From contig JAVXUO010001489.1 of assembly GCA_033065855.1 (NCBI GenBank), positions 434,001 through 498,000 on the forward strand: DNA of 64,000 nucleotides, read 5' to 3'. The DNA comes from Escallonia rubra (Eukaryota > Streptophyta > Magnoliopsida > Escalloniales > Escalloniaceae). The translations under genes were made by a program, and so were the position numbers. This document shows, piece by piece, positions 3,029 to 62,549 of the stretch. Within the stretch, counting starts at the first letter, position 1; each line of letters opens with the position of its first letter. The notes under the pieces were generated by a model. That model saw only the letters and a program-made list of their open reading frames with translations, did no database searches and was not told the origin of the DNA.

Positions 3029-3631
3029 CATTGGGTGAAGCTCGTTAAACCTCTGTATTGTGTATTATTATCTCGTCATTTTCATCTTTGATCGCCATCG
3101 CCGCTGCGTTTTCGTAACAACTTGCCGAAACAAATGATAAGCCGCCTCCTTCCCGGCACTCCAACTTTACACACGCATGAGAAATGATCGGAGCAGAGTG
3201 GATGGAGGAGAAACCGACAAAAACATGCATACTATACAACGAGACTTGGTACCAGTACAAGGAATCATGAAAGCTTCCGCATGAGTCGAGGAATCCAAGT
3301 AGAATAAGTAGAGTTTCCCTGTGCATGCACTGACCAGCCCAGCGGCCGTGGATTCGTGTATCTTTTGCCTCTGCTTACGAATAAACAATGATATGAATGG
3401 AAGGCTAAGGTTTTGCCACAAACGTTAGTCAAAAAGAGCTGGTAAAAGCATCATTTAGGGTTTGGGTGAACATTGAAATCCCAGAATCCGATAGTTGGTA
3501 AAGAATATTTAGTCCTAAGACTAGATATTCTTTCTAATTTAATATTGGAAAGTTGGTAATTTAAAGATCTCATCCTGCTCTAACCCAATCATTTTAGATT
3601 AGTATTAAGCAAGAAAAAGTAGTTTTGAAAA
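3029..3631. other. Intergenic, no gene seen
   Basis: Two overlapping minus-strand open frames (3045-3421) have a protein-like composition, but I recognise no domain in either. They may be remnants of one gene with a frame change. No start, promoter or splice structure supports a gene. Confidence 0.4.
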
Positions 3632-5075
3632 GAGTTAATTACGCCATTGACCATTGAACTTGTAGGCAAATTTCATTTTGACCATTGGACATCAAATTGT
3701 GTCAAAGTGACCACTGATCTTTTAATTTTGTTCCAATAAGGTTATTCCGTTGAATTGAGCCTACCGGCGTCCCGTTAATTCCTTTTAGTGAGAGGTAAAT
3801 ACGTCAATTTGCATGGACATCAATTTACTTCTTTTTTTTTCTTCTTTTCTATTCTTCTTTTTCTTCTCCAATTTTTCTTCCTCCATTGCTCACTTACCCA
3901 CCACCACGTTCAATGTCTTTGAAATATGACCATTGTCGGGTAGTAAAGAAAGAAAGAAATCGCCGGAGTGGGAGATGGTCATGTCCTCCTCACCGACCCC
4001 AAAGAAGGTGGCTCTGTCACTAAGCAGGCCGGCAGAGAGGGCACCAAGAAACCGAATAGACCAGTGATCTCCCTTTCCAAGTGTGAAATCTCGCTTGCAA
4101 AGAGGGGTGAGAGAGATGTCATCGGAGATCGAAAGGTTGAGCAGATCGATGGAGATTCCTCCTTTGCCGTGACGGCGCCTGGCGGAGAGGTGGCGGAGGC
4201 GGTGGTTGGCGAGAGCTTGAAGAACGACGTGAGAGCTTACCAGGTTAATGGTCACATGAAAGCCAAGTTGGACCCTTTGGGTTTGGAAGAAAGAGAGATT
4301 CCTAATGATTTAGACCCTGCTCTTTATGGGTTCACTGAAGCTGATCTTGATCGTGAATTCTTCCTGGGTGTGTGAAGGATGTCTGGGTTTTTATCTGAGA
4401 ATCGTCCTGTGCAAACCCTTAGAGCGATATTGACCCGGCTTGAGCAGGCTTATTGCGGAAGCATTGGTTATGAGTACATGCACATTGTTGATCGTGAGAA
4501 GTGTAATTGGTTGAGAGAGAAGATTGAGACTCCGACGCCGATACAATACAATCGGCAACGTCGCGAGGTTATTCTTGACAGGGGTATGTGGAGTACTCAG
4601 TTTGAGAACTTTTTGGCCACAAAGTGGATTGCAGCCAAGAGGTTTGGCCTTGAAGGTTGTGAGACCTTGATTCCTGGCATGAAAGTGATGTTTGATCGGT
4701 CGGTAGATCTTGGGGTTGAGACCATTGTCATTGGAATGTCTCACAGAGGAAGATTGAATGTTCTGGGTAATGTTGTTAGGAAGCCACTACGCTAGATCTT
4801 TAGTGAGTTCAGCGGTGGCACAAAGCCTGTGGATGAAGTTGGGCTATACACAGGAACATGCGATGATGAAGGACAGAGAGAGAGAGAGAAATTTATTGAG
4901 GGACGGATTTGCCCCTAAATTAAACGACTTAACGGACTTAGATTTGACCGAATCTAACAGAGTGACTTAATTGAGCGCAATTGAAGAGTCCAATGGTCAC
5001 TTTGACACAAATTGATGTCCAGTGGTCAAAATGAAATTTGCCTAATAGTTCAATGGTCAATGGTGTAATTAACTC
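3632..5075. mobile_element. Mutator-like element (Pack-MULE type) carrying host gene sequence
   Basis: Long terminal inverted repeats start with gagttaattacgccattgac on the left. The right end, read in reverse, starts gagttaattacaccattgac. Similarity runs for about 90 bp strongly (3632-3720 against 4985-5075) and more weakly for a further 100 bp. The flanks are ttttgaaaa (3623-3631) and ttttgaaca (5076-5084), a 9-bp target-site duplication with one mismatch, the length typical of Mutator-like elements. No transposase is present. The interior carries a piece of the 2-oxoglutarate dehydrogenase E1 gene (4214-4860) and an unidentified GC-richer stretch (about 3890-4210). Long TIRs, 9-bp duplication and captured exon sequence together fit a Pack-MULE. 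Confidence 0.88.
4214..4870 (+). pseudogene. Captured, broken fragment of 2-oxoglutarate dehydrogenase E1
   Basis: Translation gives VRAYQVNGHMKAKLDPLGL, YGFTEADLDREFFLGV, LTRLEQAYCGSIGYEYMHI, ETPTPIQYNR, STQFENFLATKW, GMSHRGRLNVLGNVVRKPLR and IFSEFSGGTKPVDEVG. This is the N-terminal thiamine-enzyme region of plant mitochondrial 2-oxoglutarate dehydrogenase E1, which decarboxylates 2-oxoglutarate in the TCA cycle. Only about 200 of roughly 1,000 residues are present. In-frame stops fall where the family has a tryptophan (near 4374) and a glutamine (near 4794), and similarity is lost near 4850. No intron is visible in the piece. It lies wholly between Mutator-like TIRs, so I read it as transduplicated gene sequence. 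It is not a functional enzyme gene. Confidence 0.9.
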
Positions 5076-5084
5076 TTTTGAACA

Positions 5085-6990: not shown

Positions 6991-7052
6991 AACCCACCAA
7001 TTTTTCCTCTTCCCCTTTTTGACTTCTTTCTACCCTTACTTTCCACCCTCTT

Positions 7053-7058
7053 TATAAG
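7053..7058 (+). promoter_or_regulatory. TATA-like box of the amino acid permease gene
   Basis: The tataag in a ctctttataagctcg context lies 118 bp before the ATG at 7176. A GA microsatellite (about 7121-7140) sits in the presumed 5' leader. The assignment is by position and motif only. Confidence 0.5.
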
Positions 7059-7175
7059 CTCGCCTTCGTTAAACATTTTCAATTAACTACAACTCCAAGT
7101 TCTCATAAAGGAGGCACGCGGAGAGAGAGAGAGAGAGAAAGTGAGTGTGGTTACTGCACAAAACTGAAGGTAGAG

Positions 7176-10100
7176 ATGTCTAAAGAGTACCAGAAGAACA
7201 GCATGTACGTGGAAAAATCCACAGAAACACTGGAGAATGGTGGACTCGAGAAGAACTTTGACGACGATGGTCGCCCGAAAAGAACTGGTACGTATTCTTA
7301 ACCATACAGACGATAACTGACCTGTGGCATCCATGGACTCGTAGTTCTTTCTGCATTTTATCTCTTCCTTCTCATTGTGTACTTTGGTCTTGCTTGCAGG
7401 AACTTTGCTCACTGCAAGTGCACATATCATAACTGCTGTGATTGGCTCCGGCGTGCTGTCCCTAGCGTGGGCTATAGCACAGCTGGGTTGGGTGGCTGGG
7501 CCTGCTGTTCTCATGGCCTTCTCTTTCATCACCTACTTCACTTCCACCTTGCTTGCCGACTGTTACAGGTCTCCTGACCCTGTCTCGGGCAAGCGAAATT
7601 ACACCTACATGGACGTTGTCAGATCGCATTTAGGTGAACTTTGCAGAAACTAACTCAAACCTCCTCATTTATCTTGAACCTTTGTTGATAGCTGGTAGGG
7701 TACATGTTGTTGTAACCTCATAGCATCACTCGCTCTTAAAGATGGGCCTGAAGAGCATGTCTCTTGGAAAGAGAACTGTTCTGCAGCTAGGCATAAGTTT
7801 ACGTAAGTTTCAAGTTTTACTTAGAACCCACAAAAATTTGCCTTTTAAAGTGCAGAAAGAGGCTACAACTTGAGCCAGGCGTGCGTGTGTTTTTTTAAGC
7901 AATTTGCATTAATTAAAATTAATCACTACAATATAAAGACAATATTCAATCGGGTATCCCTAAAAAATAAGAGACACTCGCAGTAAGACAGATGGTCCCA
8001 AAAATGGCCAGCGCAACCTTCAAGGAATTGAAAGCAAGATAAAAACATACGGCGCGCATGTTTGTGGGTGGGTGTGTGTTTTTGTCTTTGAAATTTGTAG
8101 TCAATTCAAAATCTGAAATGGCAAGTCTTGAAAGCTTCATGTATTGATGGGGATTTGGCCTTTTATTTTCTCAGGGGGTTTCAAGGTCCAGCTATGTGGA
8201 CTAGCTCAGTACGCGAATCTTGTAGGGGTAACAGTTGGCTACACAATTACTGCGTCCATCAGTATGGTGTGAGTAAACAATTCGACCCACCTTTTCTAGA
8301 CTATGATTTCTTTGAAAATTTTCTTCTTCTTTCACCCCACCCACCCCACCCCACCCAGTGTAATTTTATGACTTATTGATCAGGGCTGTGAAGAAGTCAA
8401 ACTGTTACCACGAGCATGGACATCATGAGAAGTGCAAAATATCAAACATTCCGTTCATGATCATCTTTGCCGCCATTCAGCTGGTTCTGAGTCAAATCCC
8501 AAACTTCCACAAGCTTTCATGGCTCTCAATCCTAGCAGCTGTAATGTCTTTCGCCTACTCTTCCATAGGCCTCGGTCTCTCAATAGCCAAAATCGCAGGT
8601 ACGCGACATCCCAGGGCATGTTATGCCACACAATTAAGAACACTCAAGTCCCAAAGCATGCATAAACAAAAGGGATCTCTAAACCCTATAAGATAACTGT
8701 ATACAGGTTTATTTGGCAGTACAAAACTTTCATTCGTTAGTTATGAGGTTTTTGTCGCCCAATAATGCACCCGATATATACTGCAGTTTTACCTGCAGAT
8801 GATCTAGACAATTAGAATTTACTAGAACAAAGTTTGTCCTTTTACTTTGAAATTTGACTGGCCTAACGTTTGAAGATGTGTTCCATGAAACTTGTGTCAA
8901 GGTGGTGGACATGCAAGGACAAGTCTAACAGGGGTGACAGTTGGGGTGGACGTGTCAGGATCAGAGAAGGTGTGGACAACCTTTCAAGCCATTGGAGACA
9001 TTGCCTTTGCTTATGCCTACTCGACTGTCCTCATTGAAATACAGGCAAAATCCTATCTCTTCTCCTATTACTTCATGCCGACAGTCTAGCTACTTCTTGT
9101 AACCATATACACCAAGTTTACGCGTGTTTATAGATCATATTAAGTAAACGGTTGCTCTAAAAGCTCCAACGATTTGCACGCCAGAGGAAATTTATTTTTT
9201 ACGGCTTGAGATTTTAGAATAACTGATAAATGGACCAATCAATACCCCGCATGCAAGCAAATTTTTTGTGCTTTCTTGGCAACCCCCAGTTTCTCCATAT
9301 CTTGAGCAAGAACCTGAATGTGATTAGCTTGTTACATACTTGAAATGTGTGCCGCCGTAATAAGTGAAGGTTGAAAATTTATAATTGTGTATAGATGTTC
9401 GGTCGCATGTCATCGATCTATACAAGTTGAACTGGTTTTGCTTACGTGTCTGCCCTGAAAGCAGACCAATGACAAAGATTCTGGGTGAGAGAGATAGGAA
9501 TGATGTAGTATAAGGTCGGCTCGTACTATTAATTAATAGAGAGCACAGTTGCACGCAGCCAGTGTCTTCATACTCCAAACATTAAATAAGAGATGGCGTA
9601 ACATGGTATGTTTTGTTCTGATTGGAAGTCCTGATTTTCGTGCGGGAAACCGAAAATGCAAAATCCCAATGAATATTTTAGCCCTCTGATCTGCGGAAAG
9701 TGACAAATGTATTTGGTCCAGACTCGCGTGCCTCCATGTGCATGCACTGACTTGATAAGGACCTCGGTCTGAAATTAAAAGCAATATCAATTGAATGGAA
9801 ATATTTCGGATTAAAAGCAGTAAAGACATCTTAAACGATAATTTTTAGCAGCACATTATTAACGTCGCTAATCAAGAGTCACTTTATTATTTGCCGCTAT
9901 TAGTATTGCACGCTCTTCCCACGACTCGTGTTTTAGTTAAATTTATCATAAATGAATTACATAACCAGAATTTCCTTGATTAGGCCGAACACACTAGAAT
10001 TTATGTGACTGAGTAACCAACACGTGTGACCCTTACATAATTTTATAATTTAGCACAAGATGCCTTCCAAGTTTTATATACGGAGTATTATCATTTCAAA

Positions 10101-11768
10101 TTTGCTAGTCTAGGCAATGGGGCTACAAAAGATTCCTCATGGACCATGAGTTGATGGACCACAGACTTTCATGTGTTTGGGCCATCGAAAGTGCAATAGG
10201 CCTTTTCCAGGAATAGAAGCCCACCAATAAGATCTTGATTCCTTTTTCTTTTTTTCATCCACCATCCTTTTTGTGTTGTACTGTTACCACCTCATTTTTG
10301 ATATTATCAATGGTGTCACATCTTAGAGACTACAAGTGGGTTTGATTTGATTCTTGGGGTCACCTCAAGAAGACCATATGATCATCTACTGTTTGTACAA
10401 ACAGTCGTTTGGCAATTTTGACTCTTTTGGTGGTGGATGGATGGATGGTCCAACTCGGTAGGGCCTAAGCCTCTAAGCCACGATCTGCAAAAGTAACATA
10501 TTTGGGCATATAAACAAGCAAAATTCGGACCACAACCCCAATATATAGGGCTATCGATGGATCTACCTAGATAAGGTAGAAGCTGGTCTGCAAAAGCAAC
10601 AAATGTGAGCTTACATACAAGGGTGATGCAGAATCAAGAAAATTGCAGGAGATTTGCCAAAACTATAATCGTTAGGCAGGGGAATCGGTATTGATCAATA
10701 GACATACCACCTACTAGGTTGATAACAATTTAGCAGTTTTACTGTACTTCTCTTCCTTTGGTCAGTAGATTATAGAGCAAAATACACTGCTCAAACTTTG
10801 AAATTTATTTTCTTCCTCAAATTACTTCTTAACTCTTCACTGATCGAAATAGTTAACCCTATGCGAGGTTATATTTTGTGTGTTGGGAGACTACTTTCGA
10901 TTTCATTCGAAATCATAGACCTAATTATCTCATCAGGACACGATGATGAACGGGATAACCCTTGACAAGGGGGAAAAAGAAGACCAATTAATGCATGCCT
11001 TAAAGCTTTAAACCCAGTTGATCTGAACCATGTTCAATTGCAGAACACGCTGAGATCACACCCTCCAGAGAACAAAGTAATGAAGAGGGCCTCCCTTTTT
11101 GGCGTCTCCACCACCACCTTATTCTACGTCCTCTGCGGTTGCGCAGGCTACGCAGCATTCGGAAACGACGCACCGGGCAACTTTCTCACTGGTTTTGGTT
11201 TCTACGAACCATTTTGGCTTATCGACTTTGCTAATGTCTGCATCGCAATCCACCTCATTGGTGCTTACCAGGTAAACAACTAGTACACAGAAGAGTCCTC
11301 CTTCATTTCACCTACTTTGTCTCTAACTTGACAGCCATATACCCGCAGGTGTTCGCCCAACCCCTATTCGGCTTCGTAGAGACCTATTGCGGCGAGCGCT
11401 GGCCAGAAAGCGAATTCATCACTACCGAACACGTCGTCAAAGTTCCATGTTGCGGAGAGTTTAGCATCAACCTCTTTAGGTTGATGTGGAGGTCGGCCTA
11501 CGTTATACTGACAGCAGTGACAGCCATGATTTTGCCATTCTTCAATGCTTTCTTGGGATTGATCGGGGCAGCCTCGTTTTATCCATTAACTGTGTATTTC
11601 CCCATAGAGATGTACATTCGCCAGGCAAATATCCCCAAGTACTCTTTCACATGGACATGGTTGAAAATACTGAGTTGGGTTTGCCTAGTAGTATCACTCG
11701 TTGCCGCCGCCGGTTCTCTACAGGGCCTGGCCAGTGAGCTCAAGACTTACAAGCCCTTCAAAACTTAG
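7176..11768 (+). CDS. Amino acid permease (AAP family), seven exons
   Basis: Proton-coupled amino acid import carrier of the plasma membrane, AAP branch of the AAAP family. Exons by splice signals and family alignment: 7176-7287, 7400-7633, 8175-8268, 8384-8598, 8902-9044, 11044-11271, 11349-11768. Together they make 1,446 nt and 481 residues, the usual AAP length. The N-terminus is hydrophilic (MSKEYQKNSM). The first membrane segments follow in exon 2 with TASAHIITAVIGSGVLSLAW, the family's most conserved block. Later hallmarks are YTITASISMVAVKKSNC, AFAYAYSTVLIEIQ, GCAGYAAFG and FYPLTVYFPIEMYI. About eleven hydrophobic segments are visible. All introns are GT-AG except intron 5, which has a GC donor at 9045 (cag|gcaaaa) and is also the longest, about 2.0 kb. 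The reading frame stays open throughout, so the gene looks functional. Which AAP paralogue it is cannot be fixed by eye. Confidence 0.94.
9045..11043 (+). other. Long GC-AG intron 5 of the permease gene
   Basis: A 2.0-kb intron with donor GC and acceptor tgcag. The other introns of this gene are 77-541 bp. Sequence near 9830-9910 (aatttttagcagcac, gtcgctaat, gccgctattag) resembles motifs at 5250-5420 and 13300-13345, which may be scattered pieces of one repeat family. No ORF of note is present. Confidence 0.8.
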
Positions 11769-15157: not shown

Positions 15158-18100
15158 TCAAGGAGCTCCCGTCTCGCTAATTACAAATGCTTGTATCAGA
15201 CTCTGCGCAGCATGGGTCTGCTCAGGCGTCCCAGATATTATGATCACAGTTTCTTTTGCTCCAGGTTGTGGGTCAGTAATGGTGATTTTTGCATCAGAAA
15301 TCTGAAAGAGTGAGAGCCATATCAAATTGCTAACCCTCTGAAACACTTGGGATTTACCAAGTAAGAAGTATCATGACTGTTGATTGCGCGGAACACCACA
15401 ATCCCACCAAGAGGGGAAGAGCAGGTGAGGGAGGGAGAAAAGAAACACTTGGGCCAAAAATTCTTCTACATCATATATAGACATATTTATTTATTGGGAT
15501 AATTACAGCAAAGTCCCGAGGTTAGGGTGAAATTACAGGTGTGTCCATTAGTTTGGACAAATTCCACTTATGTCCGTTGACCAAACCGAATCTTAAAAAA
15601 ACCTAATGGTTTTAAGAAAATGACTTTATTGCCCTTGAGTTAGAAGGTTATTTTCTTTCAAATGCCATTACCTCATCTCCTCTTCTTTCTTTTCCTTTTT
15701 CTCTTCATTCGTTCTCCCCTCTCCATTGGCCCTTGCCAGCCACTAGAGCAAATAAGAGAACCTACAGCGAATGAACTTAAAGAACCACAAATTTTGACCG
15801 GATAGTAAACCTTTGTGTCTGGCTATGTCTATTGATGTGCATAAAGAACCCACACTACAAGTGGGGTCAGAAGAAGGGCCTGCCGGCGTGGTAGGGTGTG
15901 GGAAGGCACTGTCGGCGGTGGGTGTGCGACTTGAAGACCGACCCTACTCCCTTACGCCCCGGGCTCTGATGACCCGACCCATTTCTTTTCTCTCCCCTCT
16001 CTCTCTCTCGCTTCAGGGTTTGGGACGACCGGTGGAAATGAGATGGTGAGGAAGTGAAATACGGTTTGAGAGAGAGAGAGAGAGGGTTGCCGAGGGCGTG
16101 GGTGTGGGAAGGGACAACCGGCGGCGTGGGTGTGGGAGGGGACTGCCAGCGAGGTGGGGTATGGGATGGGCCTGCCGGCCTGCCGGCGTGGTGGAGTGGG
16201 GAGAGGCTACCGGCGGCGTGGGCAAGGGAGGGGGCTGCCGGCGGCGCAGGGCGAGGAGGGGGCTGCTGGCGGTGATTTAAGATGTGGAGAAATATTATTT
16301 TCTCTTAGGGTTTCTAAAGACATTTGCAGAGAGAAACCCAGCTTTTTTTGAAAATTAGGTATTTAACCCTAATTAAATAATTAAGGTTTGAGATTTTTGC
16401 AAAGTAATATATCATGTATATACCCCCTCCGTCCCACACAATTTCATCAACTCTTTTTTTTTGCACGCTAATTAAGGATTTAAGTGATATATTGTGTGTT
16501 TTATGTTCTATCCTTTAGAGAGAAGAGGGAAAGAAAGTAGGTTAGAAGAGAGAAAATGAGTTAGTAGAGTGTTAAATGTGGAGATACAAATGAATAAAAA
16601 AGTGTAAGAAAGTGGAACAGGGAGAAAAAAATTAGTTAATGGAGATTTAAATGTGGAGAGAGAAATAGAATAAAAAAAGTGTAAAAAGGGTAAATATGTA
16701 AAACTACCTACAGAATCTTTCTAAATTTGGAAATGAGCAATTTTTGTGAGATGGCCCAGAAAGAAAAATTGATCAAATTATGTTGGACAGAAGGAGTACA
16801 ATATAAGGGTAGTATTGACATTTAGAAAATACGCATGGATGACATCAGCCAAAAAGTACATTCTTTTAACAGACCGAGACGAATGGATACGGCAGATACA
16901 TTTTCAAGTTTGGTCACGGTATGTTACATTTTGAAACTTAGTGTCCTTGACTGTAATTTCACCCTAACCTCAGGGACTTTGCTGTAATTATCCCTTATTT
17001 ATTCCGGGGAAAGCACATATTAGTAAGGCCTAAAGCCAGACAATTACTTGTGGGCATTCCCATAAATAACGATTTGTTTTCGTACATTTTCAACTTTCAA
17101 GAAGATTCATGCGAGTGCAAGCAAGCCAAAACTCACCTACGAACATTTAACAAGAACAAAACCTCGATGTAACGCGTAGAACATGGTGGCAGGTAAGTTG
17201 GGATATAAAACTATGTTACAATCCCTATTCCCTAGCTGATCCCCAATAAATTTGGCCTAAAAAACAATGCACCATGAACAGATACGAGATTTCTCAAGCA
17301 CACAGATCCTCAGAAGAGTTTAATCCCAGATGGCATCAAGCTCACAGACCCTTAAAAGGGACAGAACAGTCACTCAAAGTCTCAGACCACGTATAATGAG
17401 GCATATAGAAGTTTCATAGGTAGATTGTGTTCTGCTGCAATATCGTACATTGGAGCTCTTTCTTTGCAAAAAGATCATAAACATACCTCACGGATTTGTC
17501 TCAGACATCCACCATCCTCTCCATAAATAGCAGGAACAACAGAACGAGGAATAACGACTTCCACAGTGGTGTTTGTGATAATAGCTGGGTGGCTTCCACT
17601 GCAGAGATATGAAAAAAATGTATGAATAAGGTCAGGCAAGTGACTTGACACTAAGAAGATTTTTATTTGAGGAACTCCCCCATATGATACAACTTCAGGT
17701 GCATTTTTATGTGAATATGTACACATCAAAAAGATAATCTGCAACTTACTAACCCTCCAAATCCACCAATTCGTCGTTGAGGGACTCCTGCATAATCTGG
17801 AAAGCCTATAGGGCCACCACCTTCATTTAGTCCCTGCAAGCCAATTCAAGAAGGATAAAAATATCAGCAATATGTATAGCACAATCTATTTTTAACATCT
17901 GCCAGAACTGCACAAAGTGTTCCCCCACCAAGAAAAGTCTTCGTTATTCTTCCAAACTATCATTCATTGCAAACATTGACCCAAACAGCAACCGTGCAAA
18001 GCACCTTATACCCACCACACAGAACACCCAAGATGTGCAGAAATGATGAGTACGGAAGAGCATTTGATATGAAAATTGGCTCCATGAACAATGAAACAAT

Positions 18101-20803
18101 ACCTGCGGGCCCCATGGTGACGAAGATGGCATTCTTTCAGAAATATGAGGAGGGAAGCCTGGTCTGTGGATATTGTGCAGGAAAGGAGGGCGATCATCGT
18201 GTGGATGAAAACCACCATGTGGAGGATGGGCATCAAACTTGTGAAATGACGGGCCTAGACTGGAATACATTCCAGGGGGCGAAAGTTCCCTCCTTCCCAT
18301 ATATGGAGGAAATGGAGGTAGTTGATCTGGAAACGCGGGATTTGAGTTGATGGAAGGAAATGCGTCACGGAAAAAATGGTTGCGCAGCCTAGCAGTTATC
18401 TGCAAAAGAGCATCTTGAACTGTTTCAAGTTCTCCATTTATCTGTCAACAAAGAATTATTGTAAGTAGCACACAAAGCAACACAAGGGTATGGAAACCGC
18501 TAGGTAAGAATACCGATATGCAAAATAGCACATCAATTATATTGCTTAATAGATTTATCATAGTCCAACCAACAACATCGGCATGCAAAAGCACAGTAAA
18601 GCAACCAACCTGAATCACTTCTTCCATTTCTGAGACGCACTTCGGAAATTGATCTTTCCCTAGAATGCGAATATAAGCCCCTGTTGACTTCCTCATTTCG
18701 GCTATAATAGAACCACCCTTGCCAAGGAGACATCCAATTTGACTGGAGGAGACAACAACTTTTGCTATCACAGTCTTCTCCTTGCTCTCGGGTGTAGCCC
18801 TTACTATCCTTGACTGTACACGAAGAACTGCATCCTGTGCAGCAGATATCCTATCATCTGGGTGCTGCACTAATTGACTTAAATATCAGAATTCATTTCT
18901 TGAAATATAGGAACACCACATATACGGAACAAGAGAATGCAGAATGGAAAAGCTTAACACAACAATGGAAGGATGAAGTGCCAAATCATACCGCTGGACC
19001 AGATATAACAATTATGCGATCCTCTGAGCCAGGTACGGGATCGAGAACTTTAATCTCACATCCACTCTCATGCTGTAGCGCCTTCACTATAGTTCCTCCC
19101 TTTCCAATTACACCCCCTACCTTCTCATCAGGGCATAATAACCGAAAGATCAGAATATCCTGAGAAAGATTCATACGTCCAGGAATACCACTTTCATTAC
19201 GAGGCCCAGCAGCATAAGGTGCACCTTGGAAATGATAGTTTGGTGGCGGGAATGCCTCTAGCCTGGAGGAAGGATGGCCCAAGGATTGAGATGATGGCCC
19301 ACTAGGATTGTCAGAGAGAGAATCATTGTCCCGAGAAGGATTCTCTAAAATCTGTTGAGAAACAGATTGAAGAGCTTTCCTAACTGCATCCACGCCCCCA
19401 GACATCTGCAACAATGTTCGGGAAGACAATAGGCGATATAAGCCCTATGCAAGAGCGAATAAGGAGAAATATAAAACTCTAGAACAGTACTGGAGCCAGG
19501 AGGCAACACAAGGTTGTTCTATTGTGATCTGGAGGTCACGAGTTTTTGAATCGCGGGAATTATTGTAAGGCTGTGTGCATCAGCCCTCTTCAGACCACGC
19601 AATGATGGGAGCCTTTGCACAAGGGGCACCCAGCTCTAACGATATCAGGATAGTCGTTTATCTGAACTCCACTGTACATAACTAGGTAACTTCAATTACG
19701 TAACACCAAGTCAAAGCCTTGATGGACACTCAAACCAATGGACCTGGCACAATCACCTAGAAAAATTATCCTAATAGTGGATATAAGTACAAGGCCCGAG
19801 AACAGCATAAGTAATATACCACTATCATAAAGCATCAGTTTTACATAGGATTTTTTAGTTCATAATTTCCTGCACATAACTTTTTTCCTTTTTTAAGAAA
19901 GAAATCTTATTCTTCCAAATAGAGGATCAAAAAAATCATTCTTGCTTAAATCTCATTTCAACAACCTCCTAAGCAGGATGTGTAATTTAAAAGTGAAACC
20001 AGAACTGGACCGTGAGAATACGGTATAATTTCCTTTTTTTGGGGGGGTAACTGAACAAAGTATACCTTCATCATTGATAAATGACACAATGGAAGTACCT
20101 GAACCAATTCATCAGAAGACGATGCACAAGCAGGTAATTTGTCTCTAGGAAGAATTCGAATCTGTGCCCCACTTTCAGAAGCCATTTGTTTAATTACACT
20201 GCCACCTTTTCCCAAAAGGCTGCCCACTTGACTAGAAAGCACAAGCAACCTTACGACAGTTGTGGAAGGCTTGTCACCCTCTTCATCCCCTCCATCCATC
20301 TCTGATTCTCCCTCAACCATTCTTTCAAACACAAGTAATAGAGCTTTTTGAACGGAAGAACTTCCCTTTTCAGCTTGTGAATCTTCCAGAGGAACAGATT
20401 GCTTATCTTCATCATCCTCACCCTTTTCAGTTGCATCGTCAACCTCTACAGTGGCATTAGTTTCTTCATCATCGTCTTTGCTTTGCTCACTGCCAACTCC
20501 ATTCTCTCTATCTGATCCTACAATGATAATTACTCTCTCATCACATCCCGGGACAGTTTCCTCAACCCTGACCTTGGCACCAGTTTCCTGACGTATTTGT
20601 GATATTATTGTGCCACCTTTTCCGATAACACTGCCAGTTTTGGAAGCAGCACAGAGCAAGCGAAAAACTGTGGTTCCAGGTGGGATATCCAATGATGTAT
20701 TTTGTGACGAATAAGCTGACAGCTTCTGCCACTTCCCTTTTCCATTCGGCTCTGTAAGGCCCCGATCATATGGTCTCTTTGAAGGTGTCAACTGAATTGA
20801 CAT
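15158..20803 (-). CDS. KH domain RNA-binding protein with five KH domains
   Basis: RNA-binding protein of the plant poly(C)-binding/HEN4-like KH class, closest in layout to the Arabidopsis At4g18375 type. Exons in transcript order: 20803-20099, 19405-18992, 18864-18610, 18441-18103, 17833-17754, 17598-17487, 15301-15158. They give 682 residues in an unbroken frame, and every junction has GT-AG. KH1 is near residues 45-95, KH2 182-240, KH3 318-373 and KH4 405-460. Each carries the RNA-binding loop (GKGG at about 61, 198, 336, 421). KH5 (about 598-680) has GEDG in that position and is split between exons 6 and 7. An acidic linker (about 108-145) separates KH1 and KH2; a proline/histidine/glycine-rich linker (about 480-580) precedes KH5. 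Likely roles are splicing, 3'-end choice or mRNA fate in the nucleus, by analogy with HEN4, FLK and RCF3. The start follows a plausible acceptor, so a 5' UTR intron is likely. Several introns host transposons. Confidence 0.94.
15496..16994. mobile_element. Mutator-like non-autonomous element in the last KH intron
   Basis: The left end reads gggataattacagcaaagtc. The right end in reverse complement reads the same for its first 20 bases, and similarity continues for about 45 bp (through 'gaggttagggtgaaattacag'-like sequence). It is flanked by a perfect 9-bp direct repeat, ttatttatt (15487-15495 and 16995-17003). It is 1,499 bp long with no transposase. The interior includes a GC-rich block (about 15840-16270) built from degenerate 'ggcgtgggtgtgggaggggctgccggcg'-type repeats, and a nested Stowaway MITE (16423-16796). 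It lies inside intron 6 of the KH gene, between the exons that code the two halves of KH5. Confidence 0.92.
16423..16796. mobile_element. Stowaway-like MITE nested in the Mutator-like element
   Basis: The left end ccccctccgtcccacacaat and the right end (reverse complement ctccttctgtccaacataat) are imperfect inverted repeats of about 28 bp of the CTCCCTCCGTCCC type known from plant Tc1/mariner MITEs. TA dinucleotides flank both ends (16421-16422, 16797-16798). It is 374 bp, AT-rich and non-coding. Confidence 0.85.
19495..19645 (+). mobile_element. Au-like SINE in intron 1 of the KH gene
   Basis: The order of elements (a gatctggaggtcacgagttt B-box-like region, then gaatcgcggga, then taaggctgtgtgcatcagcc, cagaccacgcaatgatggga, gcctttgcacaaggggc) matches the Au SINE family widespread in flowering plants. 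The copy is in reverse orientation to the KH gene and has several substitutions, so it is not recent. Confidence 0.75.
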
Positions 20804-20826
20804 GTTCCCAGAAATAATGAAACCCT
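20804..20826 (-). other. Likely 5' UTR exon end just before the KH start codon
   Basis: On the minus strand a pyrimidine-poor but usable acceptor (gttcatacag) ends about 23 bases before the ATG. With the candidate leader exon at 24418-24545 it suggests a 5' UTR intron of about 3.6 kb. This is inference from splice motifs. Confidence 0.4.
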
Positions 20827-21059
20827 GTATGAACTGGTATTCTCAAAAACAATGCCACATTTTAACAAATCATGAAAATAAATCTAAAGGTAATGACAGC
20901 GAAAGAAATATAACTACAAGTAATAATCAACCATGCCAAAAACAGGGAGCTTGTCATGTGCACAAAAGATTGTCATGTCACATACACAAAAGATAATCAT
21001 GTCATGTATGCAAAAAGTTATCGATTGCCTATCTGCAAACAATGAAAAGCTCTCTATAA

Positions 21060-30076: not shown

Positions 30077-30171
30077 GCGAAGCGGCATAGCCGTTCGATT
30101 TCTAGAAGCTCCGTTGTCTGTAAAGAAGATTACAGATATTTTGGAGCTTCTCGAAGTTAGGAATTTGGGCA

Positions 30172-31944
30172 ATGAATTCAACATCGGTGATGACGAGGAA
30201 CGATCAGGATCATGTACAGAGAAACGATGCAGATAAAGTTAGGGTTAGGGTTACGCCGAGGATTGGCTCCTCCTCGGCATCTCCGCCGCGGACTCGGGCG
30301 CCGGCGTGCCTATACGCGCGGCTGATGATGGAGAACTACTCGACCTTCAAGGCGAGCGGCGAGCCGGCCCGGTTCATGCGGTACGAGGACGGGTCGTGGG
30401 TCGACTTCCCTGGCGAGGCGATGGGCCCGGTGCGGTCTGGTTTCTTGGAGGGCAAGACAGTCGTTGAGGTCGAACTCGACGGCTCGACATGTCTTATTGA
30501 CTTTGCCCGCATGCTGGAGTTTGACTTGGGCTACGGAGGTCAGCGGTCCGTTGCTTGGATTGATGTTAACGGCAAGTGCTTCTTCCCCAAGACCTTCGTC
30601 GGTTCCAGTGTCGGTGATGGTCCGAAAATGACGGAAAATCGGGGTTCCGGATCCGTCTCCGAGTATCCGAAGATCCAAATCGAGATACGAATTGAGGATA
30701 ACTTGGATCCGATTCCGACCCCGAACCCAAACAAAAGAAAGCGAGATATGTTGGGATGTGTAATCGACGAGGAGAGTTCCTCGAGCGAGAAGCGGCAGGT
30801 GGTGGTCGCGGAATCTGGGCCGGCCACATGGCAGAAGGTGAGGCGGCTGAAGGAAGCGGAGAAGCCGTATGTGATGGTTAGGAACCTGTTTTTGGGCTGG
30901 CTAGGGGCGGTGGAGCCGGCGTGTAGCGGCGCCATTACCGCGATCTGGCAGTGTACCCGACCAGGCCCGCTGGACAAGGCTAGGTTCGAGGTTTTTAAGA
31001 AGCAGATGGAGATTACCAAGGCTGTTAGAGGGGATCCCAACGTGACATTCGCCTGGCACGCCACGTCGGCAGACGGGGTCGCAAGCATTTTGAGTCATGG
31101 GTTTGGGTTGACCAACAGTAGTCAGAATGGTATCTACTTATCCCCAGCTCGTTCAGGCCACAAAAGGTATCAAAATTTTCATTATGTTGTTAATCTTGTT
31201 TGGTTTGGATTATCAATGCTGTTAGTGTTGGGTGATAATGCAGCTTGATTCGAATTCATAATGATCGGTATCGTTTTTTTTTTAGTGCGATTATATTGGA
31301 GGAGGATGATAAAGGTGAAAAGCATGTTATATTGTGTCGGGTTATATTGGGCAAGTGCGAGAAAGTTGCGGTGGGGTCGAGGCAGTTGTATCCGTCGGGG
31401 AAGGAGTATGACACTGGTGTGGACGATATAAATAATCCCAAGTTGTACGTGGTGTGGGGTGCGAATATGAACACTCACATTCTGCCCGAGTGTGTTGTGA
31501 GCTACAAATTGGCTTCTAGTGTGACAGGTGAGAAATCTGCTTTGTTGCTTTGAGTTTTTGTATTTGGTTTGCAAAGATAATTATAGATGTCTGTCTGTCC
31601 TTTTTACTTAAGGTACGGGCCAGTTGAATGGAATCAATGGTTCATCGGCTTTGAAGTGGATGCCAAATGCAACAAATAAGTTGACTGCCGAGCTATTTTC
31701 CAATCTGAGTGACTCCCTTCCATCGCCAAAAGTGCAGGATTTTCATATTCTGTGCAGTAAATACAAAGTAAAATAGCCTTAGTTTGAATGTTGGCTTTGC
31801 ACTTACTTGGTTTCACTGTTGATTCAATTTTCTTTAACCGTGTTGCAGGACGGGAAAGTGGCAAAAAATGATTTCATGCAAGGGTTGCGGTCAATTGTTG
31901 GGGACGAGAAGCTGCGCTCAGCAATGCGGGAAATTCGTGGCTGA
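30172..31944 (+). CDS. RCD1/SRO family protein (WWE, PARP-like, RST domains)
   Basis: Plant-specific SRO protein, a nuclear scaffold that binds transcription factors in stress and hormone signalling; the PARP-like domain is catalytically inactive in the known members. Exons: 30172-31166, 31286-31527, 31613-31767, 31849-31944; 1,488 nt, 495 residues, unbroken, all GT-AG. A WWE domain covers about residues 50-145 (KASGEPARFMRYEDGSWVDF, VAWIDVNGKCFFP). A basic PNKRKR near 186 may be a nuclear localisation signal. The PARP-like domain covers about 232-410 (VTFAWHATSADGVASILSHG, NGIYLSPARSGH, KLYVVWGANMNTHILPECVV). An RST domain at about 425-495 (WMPNATNKLTAELFSNL to LRSAMREIRG) is the interaction module. 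The WWE domain groups it with RCD1/SRO1 rather than the short SRO2-SRO5 proteins, though it is shorter than RCD1 (589 residues). Exon 1 is much richer in GC than its surroundings. Confidence 0.94.
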
Positions 31945-54900: not shown

Positions 54901-55416
54901 TACCCCTTAAGGTTTCTGTACTTAACTCTTGATTGGGACCGCCGCTAGGAAATGAGCCTGCAAAATAGAAACACAGAGTGACCACCGGGGATGTTCCGGT
55001 GGAGGCGGCTCCGATGCTAAAGTCAGAACAACGCTACTAGGGTAGTGCTAGTGTGTTAACTTGTCCGTATACTTGAGGATCTGCCCAATATATAGGTCAT
55101 CTCTAGACTCCTCTCTTCTTTAGAACTCTTTTCTGACTGATCCTCTTGTAGAAGAGCCATGTTAGGACTCTCCCTTTAGCACTTGAGTCCTTAACGACTT
55201 CTATCACCTCTCTTAGGTTCAATCCCGATACAGATTCGTTAGTCCACTCAGAGTCAAACATGCCACGTGTCATTAGTCGGTTGGGCGGATATATTTAGCC
55301 ATATCATAATGCCCCCTGTCTTTGACGATTCCCTCAAGTGAACAGTTAAAGACATACAGTGTAGAAAATCGACCAAAAACCGTTCAGCCATTAATTTTCC
55401 ATGTATGTTGTTCAGA

Positions 55417-55450
55417 TAACATTTTGAGTGTTTCAACACTCAAAATGTTA
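55417..55450. repeat. 34-bp perfect palindrome at the edge of the 13-bp array
   Basis: taacattttgagtgtt and its exact reverse complement are separated by two bases (tc). The palindrome directly abuts the left start of the tandem array. It lies in the presumed 3' end region of the retrotransposon. Confidence 0.9.
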
Positions 55451-55454
55451 TGTT

Positions 55455-56205
55455 CGGGCGATCTTGGTCGGACGTTCTGGTCGGGACATCTGGTCGGGGA
55501 TCCTGCTCGGGAGGCCTGGTCGGGCATCCTGCTCGGGATCTCTGGTCGGGGATCCTGCTCGGGATCTCTGGTCGGGGATCCTGCTCGGGATCTCTGGTCG
55601 GGCATCCTGCTCGGGATCTCTGGTCGGGGATCCTGTTCGGGAGGCCTGGTCGGGCGTCCTGCTCGGGATCTCTGGTCGGGGATCCTGCCCGGGAGGCCTG
55701 GACGTGCATCCTGCTCGGGAGACTTGGCCGGACGTCTTGCTCGAGATCTCTGGTCGGCGTCCTGGTCGGGATCTCTGATCGGAGATCCTGCTCGGGAGAC
55801 CTGGTCGGGATGTCTGGTCGGGGATTCTGCTCGGTAGACCTGGTCGGGCATCCTGCTCGGGATGTCTGGTCGGGCAATCTGCTGGGGCAATCTAGTCCGG
55901 CACTATGCTCGGATTGTGCTTGGGCACTCTGCTCGGATTGTGCACGAGCACTCTGCACGGGGATTCTGCACGGGCACTCTGCACGGGCATTCTGCTCGGG
56001 CACTCTGCTCGGGCATTCTGCTTGGGAACTCTGGACGGGCACTCTGCTCGGGCACTCTGCTCGGGCACTCTGCTCGGGCACTCTGCACGGGCACTCTGCT
56101 CGGGCACTCTGCTCGGGCACTCTGCTTGGGCACTCTGCTCGGGCACTCTGCACGGGCACTGTGCTCGGGCACTCTGCACGGGCACTCTGCTCGGGCACTA
56201 CCACG
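55455..56205. repeat. Tandem array of a 13-bp unit with higher-order structure
   Basis: About 750 bp are built from a 13-bp unit close to tcgggcactctgc. In the left half (to about 55890) units alternate, tcgggatctctgg with tcggggatcctgc, giving a 26-bp higher-order period. In the right half the simpler tcgggcactctgc or cacgggcactctg form repeats almost singly. Because 13 is not a multiple of 3 and the unit has no stop in any phase, long open frames appear on both strands; these are not genes. Confidence 0.92.
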
Positions 56206-56355
56206 TGGCGGGAATCGAAACAGTTGTAACGTTCCTTTAGCCGCCAAAATTGTGGCGGTTTAATTTTGAATTTCAAAATTAAATACTCTGGGAAACGCGC
56301 CAGACGTGAATTAAATGTTGCCGCCTTTACAATGGCGGTTACTCCAACTCTTATC

Positions 56356-56499: not shown

Positions 56500-58493
56500 A
56501 GTCTGTCTAGAATATGTGTTCATCGACTTCAAGTAGGTCTTAGTCACCTTCGAGTAGTTCAACAGAAAACGATTTAGAAAGTGATTCAGAAAGTAGATCC
56601 TCACAAGTAGGTACTTCAACTCATAACAGCCAAGTAGGAACTTCTGCTCCCCAAACCAGCACTTCGTTTCCCCATATAGATGATGCTCTTGGGGAAATCA
56701 AAGATGAAGCTGAAGATAAGTTTGATGAAGACACTTGGTTCGCCGCAGATGAGAAGAGGAACAAGATGTCAAAAGAAAGCATAGTCAAGCTTTTGGAAGA
56801 ATATCCTTTGCCTCCTCCTTTCTCTGCTCGGGTTCCTGCACTCCAAGAGCCTGCCAACTATGGTACGGACTTGGAAACCAGTGTCTACGAAGGCCAGATT
56901 AAGTCTGGCTATAGAATCCCAATGCACCCCTTTGCCGTCGCCTTTTTCAACCACTATAAAATGGCGCCAGGTCAACTTGTGCCCAACGGGTGGAGGAAGC
57001 TAGTTGGCTTGATTTACCTTGTGCAGACCTCAGGGTATCCAGTGACGGTCCATGACTTCATGAGGTTATACCTTGAGGTATGCTTTGTAAAGAATGTGGC
57101 CAAATGTGTTGGCTGGTATTACATTCACAACCGGATCAGAGTGATAAAGGGGGGTCCCAAATCTAACAAAGGTTGGCACTCCCGATACTTCTTCATTCAG
57201 CGGCCAAGCGGCAAATGGGAGTTCCCAAGAAAGTGGAACGGTTTCTGTAAAGATTACGAAAAGAAGGGCTTTCTGGCTCCCAATGCTATGACAAAGAAAC
57301 TACTTGATCACATAAAGAGGAGGGGTGTTCTCAATATTGATGAACCCCTTACAGATCAAGAGATGCAGCATGCGGGGCTCATTCCTCCTGCCCCCGCTAT
57401 GCCTGTTCCTCCAACTCCTGTTTTAGAACCTCGAATTGTTTCGAAGCCTAAGACTCGAGAACTGGCGATAGGAACATCGTCTTCTAGTACTCCAAGTCTA
57501 GGTAGAGTCTGAAGCCATGTTTATATATTTCTGTTCTTTCTTTTTGTGAACAAGTTATCTAACTCGGTTTCTTTTGTTTTCTTACAGAAATGGCTGTGCA
57601 AAAGGTGACTTTATAGGATTGCTGCAAAAGGCTTTGAAGGGGAAAAGGAAGGAGAGCACGGGGGAAGGTTCTTCTCCTCATGTAAAAAGGCTTCGCGCTC
57701 ATATTCCTCCTCTTGTGGTTGAGGATATTTTCATCGACAAAGATCCAATCTTTCGTCCCCGATGGACCATTAAGAGAGGGGACTCGGGAATGCCCCACTC
57801 GCACGTCTCCGCTCAACACTTAGCTCATGGGGTGTTGCCAAGTGATAAACTTATCTTGGAAAACCAGCCTCATGAGGCCTTTGCTATGGCGCACGTCCAA
57901 GTTGCTTACAACGTAATTTGAATTACTTTACCCTTTTTTTTTGGGTTGTTACTTAAACTCTCCCCGTCCTTCTGACACATAATTCGTTTTCATCTCTCTC
58001 TTATTTTCAGGCTTACTGCTATAACAGCCAAATGCAGGACAGGTTCGCTATGGTGATGGATGTGGCTCGCAACGCCGAAACTGACAAGAGAGTAGCTGAA
58101 GGCAAGGCTGACAAACTTGACAAGGAGGTCAAGAACCTCAAGACGGAGAATGCTGATCTGCTTACTAAACTCGGTCGTCTTGAAAAAAGATGTGAGAAAC
58201 TAAGGCATGAAAAGGCCGAGATCGGGAATAAGGCAATCCAGGCATTCCTTGATGGTACTGCTGGCGATGAATGGCTCCGGAAGCGGACAGAAGATGGGCT
58301 TTCCATCTTTCAAGAGGGCTTCCAGAAAGCCAAGGAGTTAACGGTGGCCAAATATCCGAGCCTTTTCTTGGAAGACGTTGTGGTGCCCAGCTTTGACTCG
58401 CCATCGGGGGAAACTGCTGCACCTACTGAAGCTGGAGATGCTATTTCTCCTGGGGAGAAAAGTGTCCGATCCGGGAATACTCCTGCGTCTTAG
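56500..58493 (+). CDS. Extra antisense gene of the Tat-type retrotransposon
   Basis: Plus-strand coding region opposite in direction to the element's pol. The longest part (about 56766-57512) contains IKSGYRIPMHPFAVAFFNHY, MAPGQLVPNGWRKLVGLIYL, GWYYIHNRIRVIKGGPKSNK and GWHSRYFFIQRPSGKWEFP. This is a conserved plant protein type found in very many copies as the additional ORF of Tat-lineage gypsy elements and often annotated as 'putative plant transposon protein'; its role is unknown. Further plus-strand coding-like stretches follow near 57590-57920 and 58030-58493. The last is rich in K, E, L and A in a heptad-like pattern and should form a coiled coil. It is part of a fossil element, and I do not propose a joined product. 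Confidence 0.7.
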
Positions 58494-59057: not shown

Positions 59058-59379
59058 CTTGAGCAACATTCATTGTTTCACTTAATCGAGCAGTCTGTTC
59101 GGGCAGTCTGCTCGGATATTGAATGTACGTCGTTCTTGGGAACATGAATATCGTCAACTGAATTAACCAATGATCGTTATGCTAATGTAAGCAATACCTC
59201 TTTCACACAATAATTAAGATGTTAATATTGGGTAGACGAAACGATATACTTCAAACTGCAGCTGAATTTTCTTATAACGGAAACACTTCATCTCTACTCT
59301 CCAACTATGTTCTATGCCACTTTCCTCCACAACCAAAAAAAGAAAAAGTCTTCGCTTTTCCTCAAGATTCTACTGGTAG

Positions 59380-60400
59380 TATTTCCTCAAGTTGTCAGCA
59401 TTCCATGTTCGCGGGATCGCCTCTCCTGAAAGTGTTTCCAATGAATAAGGGCCTGGCCTAAGCACCTTCGATATCTTGTAAGGTCCTTCCCAGTTTTGCG
59501 ACAACTTCCCCACAGCTGCCTTAGGGTTTGAAACTTCCAATTTTCTGAGGACTAGATCGCCAACTCTAAATATCTTCATTCGGACATTTCGATTGTAGAA
59601 TCTTGCAACTCGTTGTTTTGTTGAAATCATCCGATCTAAGGCTTGGGCTCGCACATCATCTAATAGATCCAGATTCCCTCTGAGATTCTCTTCGTTTTCT
59701 GCCTCCGAAAATTGCAACACTCGAACCGTTGGGAGGCCCACTTCTAAGGGTAGCAGCGCCTCTGTACCGAAAGACAGGAGAAATGGTGTCTCGCCTGTCA
59801 CAGAATGGGGTGTTGTGCGGTATGCCCAAAGTACCTTAGGAAGCTCATCAACCCATGCCCCCTTCGCATCGTCCAGCTTTCTTTTCAACCCTTGAAGGAT
59901 TGAGCGATTCATGTTCTCTGTCTGTCCATTGGATTGGGGATGAGCGACCGACGTAAAACGGAGATCAATAGAGAGACCTTCACAAAAGCTTCGAAAGTTT
60001 GAATTGTCGAATTGCTTCCCATTATCAGTGATCAGGACCTTTGGAACCCCAAAGCGGCAGACAACGTTCTTCCAGAAGAACTCTTCGCATTTCGATGCCG
60101 TTATGGTGGCCAACGATTCGGCCTCAGTCCATTTTGTGAAGTAGTCGATGGCGACTATCACAAAATGCCTTTGCCCGGTAGCCATCGGAAATGGGCCCAA
60201 AATATCCATTCCCCACATTGCAAACGGAATTGGGGAAGTCAAGATACTAAGGGGTGCCGCCGGCGTGTGCGTGAGCGGGGCAAATTTTTGACAGCGGTCA
60301 CATCTTTTTGTGAACTTGATCGCCTCTCTCTGCATACCTGGCCAATAATAACCTTGCCGCAAGATTTTGTGCGCCAGGTTTCTTCCCCCAAGTGTTGTTC
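59380..60400 (-). mobile_element. Integrase part of the Tat-type element
   Basis: Zinc-binding HHCC region (GYYWPGMQREAIKFTKRCDR) followed by the DDE core: GMDILGPFP, VLITDNGKQFD and NGQTENMNRSILQGLK. A tail segment reads RVGDLVLRKLEVSNPK and NWEGPYKISKVL. This order is the Ty3/gypsy integrase. Confidence 0.93.
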
Positions 60401-60699
60401 GCAAATCCCTTCATGGACCTCCTGTAATGCATGGTCCGCCTATCGAGGGTTTAAGCACTTTAGGTATGGCAGGCTAAAAGCCTTCTTGTATAGCATCCCG
60501 TCTACAAGAGCAAACCGAGCAGCTTTAGCACGTAAATTGCGCGNTTTGATTTTCTCTAACGGTAACACTCCCGAGACGAGGTACTGAATAATTGGGTCCA
60601 TCCAGCAAGGTTCATGTTCTATTACATCCACCTCCTTTGAGAGCTGGATACTTCTTTCTTGGAGGAACTCAATGTATACTGCCCTGTTTAATTTCGAAA

Positions 60700-61400
60700 T
60701 GTCTTCGGAAGTCAGTCTTGACAGTGAGTCTGCTTGGGCATTTTGGTCTCGCGGTATGTGGCGGATGGCGAAATTTTTGAACTTAGCAGCTTCCGTTTTC
60801 ACGGCTTGGAGGTACTGGGCCATTCTATCATCTTTCGCCCCATATTCTCCCAAGATATGATTCACAACTAATTGAGAATCATTATGGACGGAAAGAGAAT
60901 CAACTTTGAGAGAGTGTGCCAACCTTATTCCTGCTAGGAGCGCCTCGTACTCAGCTTCATTGTTTGATGCCTGGAAATTGAAGCGGAGGGCGTACTCAAT
61001 CACAAACTTTTCAGGGCTGATAAGTATAAGCCCGGCTCCGCTACTTCCTACCTTGGAAGAGCCGTCAACATAAAGGAGCCAAGGATCCGAAACTTCTGAA
61101 AGAATCAACTGCGGGGGGTTCTCCGGTATTGTGCACTCAACAACAAAATCTGATAAGGCTTGAGCCTTAATTGCTGTACGGGGTTGATACCGAATATCAA
61201 ACTCGCCCAGTTCCACCGACCAGTTTACCAACCTCTCCGACGCATCAGGATTTTGGAGAAGCTTACCCAATGGTTGATCAGTCAAGCCAACGGTGGTGTG
61301 CGACTGGAAATATGGTCTCAATTTCCTCGCCGAAGTGACAAGGGCTAGGGCCACCTTGTCTATTCGAGGGTACCTCGTTTCCACGTCCTGTAAGACCTTG
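60700..61400 (-). mobile_element. Two RNase H parts of the Tat-type element
   Basis: The end of the usual gypsy RNase H is seen in ETRYPRIDKVALALVTSARK and FDIRYQPRTAIKAQALSDF. It is followed by a second, complete-looking RNase H with LYVDGSSKVGSSGAGLILIS, NNEAEYEALLAGIRLA, DSQLVVNHILGEY and DQNAQADSLSRL. A second RNase H is a feature of the Tat lineage. Confidence 0.88.
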
Positions 61401-61449
61401 CTCATGTAATAAACAGGTCTTTGCTTGCCTTCTTCCTCTCGGATTAAAA

Positions 61450-62450
61450 CATGCTTACCGCTACTTCACTAACCGGTAGGTATAAGAATAGGTCTTCGCC
61501 AGTAACCGGTTTTGTAAGGAGCGGCGGGGACGACACGTCTTGATTCCATTCTTCAAATGACCTCTGGCATTCTTCGGTCCACTCGAAATCTTTCGCCATC
61601 CTGATAGCTTTATAAAAGGTGAGGCGTTTTTCGACTGACTTGGACATGAACCTTCCTAAAGCCGCCACTCGTCCTCTAAGCTCGTGAACCTGCTTGATTG
61701 TCTTAGGCGACTTCATGGCATGAATATCGCCTATCTTTTCTAGGTTTGCTTCGATACCTCGTTGAGATACCACGAATCATAATATCTTCCCTGATGCTAC
61801 GCCAAACGCACACTTGAGCGGGTTTAGTTTCATGTTATAAGCTCTCAGGATGTCGAAGGTTTCCTTGAGGTCTTCCACATGAGCCTCGGCTTCCACACTC
61901 TTGACCAGCATGTCATCCACGTATACCTCCATGTTTCTCCCAATTGAGTCGTGGAAGATCATGTTAACGAGGCGCTGATAAGTTGCCCCCGCATTCTTGA
62001 GTCCGAAAGGCATGACTTTATAACAATATAATCCCCGTTCTGTAATAAAGGAGGTCTTGGGGATATCATCTACGCACATCTTTATCTGGTTGTACCCAGA
62101 ATACGCATCCATGAAACTTAACAGCTCATGACCCGAAGTTGCATCAATCAAAATGTCAATTCGAGGTAGCGGGTAGCTGTCTTTTGGGCAAGCCTTGTTG
62201 AGGTCAGTGAAGTCGATGCATATCCTCCAATGGTCGCTCGACTTCGGTACCATCACAACAATGGCGACCCAATCAGGATACGATATATCCTCAATGAATC
62301 CTGCTGTCAATAACTTGTCAACTTCTTCTTCGATTTTCACTTGTCTTTCAGGAGCGAATGTCCTCTTCTTTTGCTTGACCGGCTTCTTGAGTGGGTCAAC
62401 ATTCAATTTATGGGTGATCACTTCGGGATCAATCCCAGGCATCTCGTATG
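61450..62450 (-). mobile_element. Reverse transcriptase part of the Tat-type element
   Basis: Signature segments: FIEDISYPDWVAIVVMVPKS, WRICIDFTDLNKACPKDSYP, LSFMDAYSGYNQIKM, TYQRLVNMIF and the active-site block MEVYVDDMLVKS. The order is typical of Ty3/gypsy reverse transcriptase. Confidence 0.93.
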
Positions 62451-62549
62451 CCGTCCAGGCGAAGATATCTGAGTAGCGCCTTAATAAATCCACAAGCTTT
62501 AGCTTGAGTTTGTCTGACAGTTCGGTTCCTACCCTTACTGTCTTCTTTT

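What the first reader, a model, noticed from the sequence alone, without database searches (positions are those of the whole stretch)
3623..5084. Pack-MULE that captured a piece of 2-oxoglutarate dehydrogenase E1
Seen: TIRs of about 90 bp beginning gagttaattac, a 9-bp flanking duplication (one mismatch), and between them about 200 codons of the E1 subunit with two in-frame stops. Known: Mutator-like elements acquire host gene fragments (Pack-MULEs). The captured piece shows no intron across about 600 bp, so either one large exon or a spliced copy was taken up. A second interior block (3890-4210) of unknown origin may make it a chimera.
Basis: partly seen in the sequence, partly recalled or inferred. 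Interest (0 to 1): 0.75.

Follow-up and report, generated by a model that had tools for sequence, protein, structure and literature searches.

The report
Pack-MULE carrying a broken OGDH-E1 fragment
What looks like a short plant jumping gene of the Mutator type carries a broken, intron-free piece of a gene for a core respiratory enzyme; elements of this sort are well known in plants, so this looks like an ordinary new example.

Summary
A 1,444-bp element (3632-5075) has inverted ends beginning GAGTTAATTAC. The outer 87 bp match at 79 of 87, and a weaker match runs on to about 175 bp. It is flanked by TTTTGAAAA / TTTTGAACA, matching at 8 of 9 bases. An ungapped scan found no other inverted pair of 40 nt or more in the 64 kb. 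Inside lie 4229-4864, about 212 codons of 2-oxoglutarate dehydrogenase E1 in one frame, with two in-frame stops and no frameshift. The interior block 3890-4228 is GC-rich and has no relative in the libraries searched. Its best coding frame is that of E1 (3 of 1000 shuffles reach the score), which mildly supports a chimera. Each end carries three TGACCAYTGRWC motifs at identical offsets (17, 48, 77), the only six in the window. Best reading: a non-autonomous Pack-MULE with a decayed, probably chimeric cargo, about 2.1 kb upstream of an amino-acid transporter gene. No host genome is held, so the parent gene, exon borders, copy number and small RNAs could not be tested. New member of a known kind; low interest.

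The parts
3623..3631 (.). 5' copy of the 9-bp target-site duplication, TTTTGAAAA
   Evidence: 8 of 9 match with 5076-5084; 0.00027 for random pairs
3632..3741 (+). 5' terminal inverted repeat (first 87 bp best conserved; decaying homology to about 3806)
3648..3719 (+). three TGACCAYTGRWC motifs at 3648, 3679 and 3708 (offsets 17, 48, 77 from the end)
   Evidence: six matches in the whole window, all in the two TIRs; pattern written after seeing the TIRs
3827..3890 (+). pyrimidine-rich CTT tract inside the 5' end, resembling a plant 5' UTR (resemblance recalled, not tested)
   Evidence: read directly
3890..4228 (+). GC-rich block of unknown origin; open from 3947 in the same frame as E1
   Evidence: GC 0.534; for 3947-4228 the best of six frames in codon score is the E1 frame, 3 of 1000 shuffles reach it; no Pfam or NCBIfam match, PDB matches outside E1 at E 0.45 or worse, none antisense
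4229..4864 (+). fragment of the 2-oxoglutarate dehydrogenase E1 gene, VRAYQ... to ...YTGTCD, in-frame stops at 4373 (TGA) and 4793 (TAG), no frameshift, no intron in the frame
   Evidence: the last nine codons (4838-4864) rest on inspection against the GTGD motif of a homologue printed
4865..4900 (+). junction with an (AG)n run between the E1 fragment and the 3' TIR
   Evidence: read directly
4966..5075 (-). 3' terminal inverted repeat, with the same three motifs at the same offsets (decaying homology inward to about 4901)
5076..5084 (.). 3' copy of the 9-bp target-site duplication, TTTTGAACA

Best explanation
A non-autonomous Mutator-like element that took up a piece of the host's gene for mitochondrial 2-oxoglutarate dehydrogenase E1, probably next to a piece of a second coding sequence (a Pack-MULE), and was inserted here by a MULE transposase supplied by another element. 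Shown: the ends, the flanking duplication, the E1 identity, the two stops, no transposase domain in the frames tested. Inferred: that the host is a plant, movement as one unit, capture at the DNA level from a large exon, transposase binding at the repeated TIR motifs, no protein product. Any effect today would be through RNA: transcription from a TIR promoter and small RNAs matching E1. I put such an effect at about 15 to 20 percent and dead cargo as more likely.
For: TIRs and duplication; no other inverted pair of 40 nt or more in an ungapped scan of the window; E1 homology over residues 6-214 of mitochondrial OGDH chain 7wgr_A, E 1.8e-52, with X at the two stops; no Pfam transposase in 14 of 22 stop-to-stop frames of 40 aa or more overlapping the element; cargo GC 0.458 and 0.534 against 0.345 and 0.364 in the TIRs, in line with reported capture of GC-rich sequence (passages of PMC4858842, and PMC8277862). 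Tomato Pack-MULEs are reported most abundant at 1000-1200 bp, and PM-ZIBP-1 has the duplication TTTTAAATT and 87% TIR identity (passages of PMC3310237).
Against: The parental gene was not seen. No second copy of this TIR family was found, but only the window and one 19-base exact pattern in viral contigs could be searched. The short terminal motif GTTAATTAC with up to one mismatch occurs 20 times in the window, as chance predicts (19.8), so it tells nothing by itself. The duplication has one mismatch and is near-palindromic. TIR divergence cannot date the insertion, since the ends of one MULE may differ from the start (recalled).
Confidence: 0.92

Rival explanations
1. A variant of the best explanation: the cargo came from a spliced E1 messenger, so that reverse-transcribed DNA was used as filler, or a MULE formed around a retrocopy.
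For: The E1 frame runs 636 bp without an intron.
Against: No poly-A and no recognised UTR next to the E1 piece; both ends of the piece are internal to the gene. A single large exon explains the same thing and needs no RNA step. Exon borders in the host are unknown.
Confidence: 0.08
2. Not a captured fragment: an E1 pseudogene that was there first, flanked by chance or by two separate MULE ends.
For: Only one copy is known; the E1 piece is decayed.
Against: The TIRs match from the first base with motifs at identical offsets, a 9-bp duplication abuts both ends, and the E1 similarity stops inside the ends on both sides.
Confidence: 0.03
3. A variant of the best explanation: a MULE-derived chimeric gene that is still used, in which the block and E1 form one translated reading frame (3947-4372, 142 codons).
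For: Open frame through the junction, with codon bias in that frame.
Against: No ATG in that open frame upstream of the E1 part (the first M is that of NGHM); a stop at 4373; sense-strand open frames as long as that of the block arise in 117 of 1000 shuffles; the piece alone lacks the rest of the enzyme.
Confidence: 0.04

Closest known systems
Pack-MULEs of plants (first described in rice by Jiang et al. 2004, recalled and seen only in a reference list; PMC3310237, passages seen)
   Same: TIRs of about 100 bp or more, 9-bp duplication, non-autonomous, gene-fragment cargo, size near 1-1.5 kb
   Different: Cargo gene (OGDH E1): no paper in the open library holds both 'Pack-MULE' and 'oxoglutarate dehydrogenase'; host and parent unknown
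Tomato PM-ZIBP Pack-MULE family (PMC3310237, passages seen)
   Same: PM-ZIBP-1 has a single pair of TIRs, 87% TIR identity, an AT-rich 9-bp duplication and a captured gene fragment; repeated motifs are reported inside its TIR
   Different: Different captured gene; 13 of its 14 copies have tandem TIRs, not seen here; copy number here unknown
Pack-TIR elements of animals (PMC8277862, passages seen)
   Same: Duplicated sequence between TIRs; gap filling or replication-fork template switching proposed as origin
   Different: Animal hosts; not limited to Mutator-like elements

Membership tests
Mutator-like elements (MULE, TIR type) | long TIRs, typically 100-500 bp (passage of PMC3310237) | tested here: met
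   95 of 110 aligned, E 3e-34; weaker homology to about 175
Mutator-like elements (MULE, TIR type) | 9-11 bp target-site duplication with at most 2 mismatches (criterion in PMC3310237) | tested here: met
   9 bp, one mismatch
Mutator-like elements (MULE, TIR type) | mobilised by a MULE (MURA-type) transposase | not testable with these tools
   no host genome held; no transposase domain found inside the element in the 14 of 22 frames tested
Mutator-like elements (MULE, TIR type) | belongs to a repeated TIR family in the host | tested here: inconclusive
   no other copy in the 64 kb window; genome not held
Pack-MULE | carries a fragment of a cellular, non-transposon gene | tested here: met
   OGDH E1, E 1.8e-52 to mitochondrial chain 7wgr_A
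Pack-MULE | parental copy elsewhere in the genome, not associated with TIR elements (practice described in PMC8277862) | not testable with these tools
   no host genome held
Processed pseudogene / retrocopy | intronless, poly-A tail, extends to the 3' end of the messenger (definition recalled) | tested here: not met
   intronless in frame, but no poly-A after the piece and both ends lie inside the E1 gene

The most novel reading that the evidence does not exclude
The E1 piece was captured from spliced RNA, so that a DNA transposon took up a reverse-transcribed gene fragment and joined it in frame to a second coding piece.
Probability: 0.06. Interest if true: 0.5.

Novelty: new member of a known kind. 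Interest (0 to 1): 0.2.

Why it matters
It adds one clear example, with a central metabolic enzyme as the source, to a well-known class of gene-capturing transposon. The three-fold TIR motif gives a concrete candidate for transposase binding in this TIR family. If the host's E1 gene turned out to have an intron inside the captured stretch, the example would bear on the open question of how Pack-MULEs pick up their cargo.

Tried and rejected
Host genome search: no genome is held. Exact 19-base pattern from the 3' TIR in viral contigs, in hope of plant contaminants: 0 matches. Terminal motif GTTAATTAC in the window: 20 sites with up to one mismatch, 19.8 expected; the one exact site outside the element, at 48318, was not followed further. 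E1 query in viral contigs: 5 candidate stretches, none a relative. E1 query in genome contigs: 40 candidate stretches, 11 relatives, all 11 titled as bacteria, 40-47% identity, no plant contaminant and so no exon borders. Papers with AT3G55410 (gene name recalled), exons and 2-oxoglutarate dehydrogenase: 0. Paper searches were seen as listings; of the papers listed I opened PMC3310237, PMC8277862, PMC13317346 and PMC4858842, and saw passages only. No tRNA and no Rfam match in the window. Origin of block 3890-4228: no Pfam, NCBIfam or antisense PDB match; sense PDB matches outside the E1 part were weak, E 0.45 or worse. Antisense coding in the block: 112 codons open, but 140 of 1000 shuffles reach that and its antisense codon scores are negative. 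Length of the open frame as evidence of coding: rejected (117 of 1000 shuffles; both strands at once 22 of 1000). Dating the insertion from TIR divergence: rejected, since the two ends of one MULE need not start identical (recalled). A 21-bp match of the AG run to 7120-7140 was taken as simple repeat.

Full report
What was checked. The finding names 3623-5084. The element proper is 3632-5075 (1,444 bp), and the named interval adds exactly the two 9-bp flanking copies. The outer 87 bp of the two ends match at 79 of 87 with no gap, and BLASTN aligns 95 of 110 at E 3e-34. The best shuffled pair of 260-bp ends scores 31 against 149 observed, over 500 shuffles. Homology continues weakly inward to about 175 bp (58 of 90 columns for 88-175; 0 of 500 shuffles reach the global score of 111-175; for 111-260 the local score is 28 against a shuffle maximum of 26). 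An ungapped scan of the whole window for inverted repeats of 40 nt or more, copies up to 12 kb apart, returns this pair only. As a further control, the ends of 1,252 stretches of 1,444 bp, taken every 50 bp along the window and including those overlapping the element, were aligned in the same way: three score above 30 and all three start at 3601-3701, within the element's own ends.

The flanking duplication is TTTTGAAAA / TTTTGAACA, 8 of 9, a level that random 9-mer pairs from the rest of the window reach at a rate of 0.00027. Because the 9-mer is nearly palindromic, it also looks like an outward extension of the inverted repeat (one search reports arms from 3625). The start at GAG is the one that leaves a duplication.

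Cargo. In the frame starting at 4229 the sequence reads 216 codons to 4876 with two stops (TGA 4373, TAG 4793) and no frameshift. The 139 codons between the stops match OGDH E1 chains in the Protein Data Bank (15 distinct sequences at E 0.001 or better, DHKTD1 among the weakest, best 1.3e-40) and TIGR00239 (4.2e-44). With X at the stops, the piece aligns from query residue 1 to 203 with residues 6-214 of mitochondrial OGDH chain 7wgr_A, E 1.8e-52. Query residues 204-212 are assigned by inspection, from the GTGD of a homologue printed. Pfam E1_dh alone is weak (0.096, below its cut-off), and its match starts near the beginning of that profile, so the piece covers mainly the region before the domain. 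Both ends of the E1 piece are internal to the gene.

No transposase. Of the 22 stop-to-stop frames of 40 aa or more that overlap the element, 14 were scanned against Pfam, one of them only in part. None matched a transposase; the only family reported was E1_dh.

The unknown block. 3890-4228 has GC 0.534, against 0.398 and 0.344 in the 500-bp flanks and 0.345 and 0.364 in the TIRs. With codon usage trained on four other coding stretches of the window (862 codons, E1 left out), the best of six frames for 3947-4228 is the frame of E1; the other five score below zero, and 3 of 1000 shuffles reach the best score. The E1 piece itself gives 8 of 1000 by the same test. The stretch was chosen as the part open in that frame, which favours that frame a little. 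So the block is about as coding-like as E1 and in the same frame. This favours a chimera of two coding pieces, but the test is small and the source was not found. Stop-free length alone is not evidence (117 of 1000 shuffles). No ATG precedes the E1 part in that open frame, so I do not propose a protein.

A detail not in the finding: each TIR carries TGACCAYTGRWC three times at offsets 17, 48 and 77 from the end, identical in the two TIRs, and the six sites are all that the window has. The pattern was written after seeing the TIRs, so the count is descriptive. Spacings of 31 and 29 bp are near three helical turns. The maize transposase MURA is reported to bind a conserved motif of about 32 bp in the TIR (passage of PMC3310237), so these repeats are a reasonable guess for a binding array; nothing here tests it.

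Mechanism (inferred). A MULE with AT-rich ends acquired a piece of E1 and probably of a second coding sequence, then moved here using a transposase made elsewhere, duplicating 9 bp. Gap filling and template switching are proposed capture routes (passages of PMC8277862); the window cannot tell them apart. Two stops in the piece, with the frame otherwise kept, say that it is not used as E1. Reported consequences of such cargo are chimeric transcripts and small RNAs that can silence the donor gene (passages of PMC13317346; seen for other elements and hosts).

Limits. No call names the host: that it is a plant is inferred from the element type, the neighbouring genes and recall of plant E1 proteins. 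Attempts to reach a plant E1 gene through other collections failed. The absence of 'Pack-MULE' together with 'oxoglutarate dehydrogenase' in print rests on one search of the open library and says nothing about supplementary tables, where such captures would be listed.

Verdict. It is an ordinary Pack-MULE with a decayed, probably chimeric cargo.

Noticed in passing
3648-3719 and 4988-5059: Three 12-bp TGACCAYTGRWC motifs per TIR at identical offsets 17, 48 and 77; no other site in the 64 kb.
   Followed up: partly
7023-11765 (+): Amino-acid transporter gene (Pfam Aa_trans in 7345-7650 and 11235-11765); by inspection its first ATG may be near 7176, about 2.1 kb downstream of the element and on the same strand as the E1 piece.
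   Followed up: partly
17947-20842 (-): KH-domain protein gene; two KH_1 stretches in 19961-20842; the frame 17947-18444 gave no Pfam match and may or may not belong to it.
   Followed up: no
30124-31245 (+): WWE-domain protein (WWE_5, 6.5e-24), probably RCD1/SRO-like (that label is recalled).
   Followed up: no
55310-56354: Repetitive tract open in several frames on both strands, giving long repetitive open frames; looks like a minisatellite, not tested.
   Followed up: no
59373-63999 (-): Retrotransposon with gag, reverse transcriptase and integrase matches, probably gypsy type, open to the window end; a 'Transposase_28, putative gypsy type transposon' match lies at 56544-57509 (+).
   Followed up: no
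3814-3826: TGGACATCAATTT, 13 bp inside the 5' end, exactly complementary to a piece of the 3' TIR at 5009-5021 (pair I5); perhaps a trace of a rearranged or tandem end, perhaps chance.
   Followed up: no
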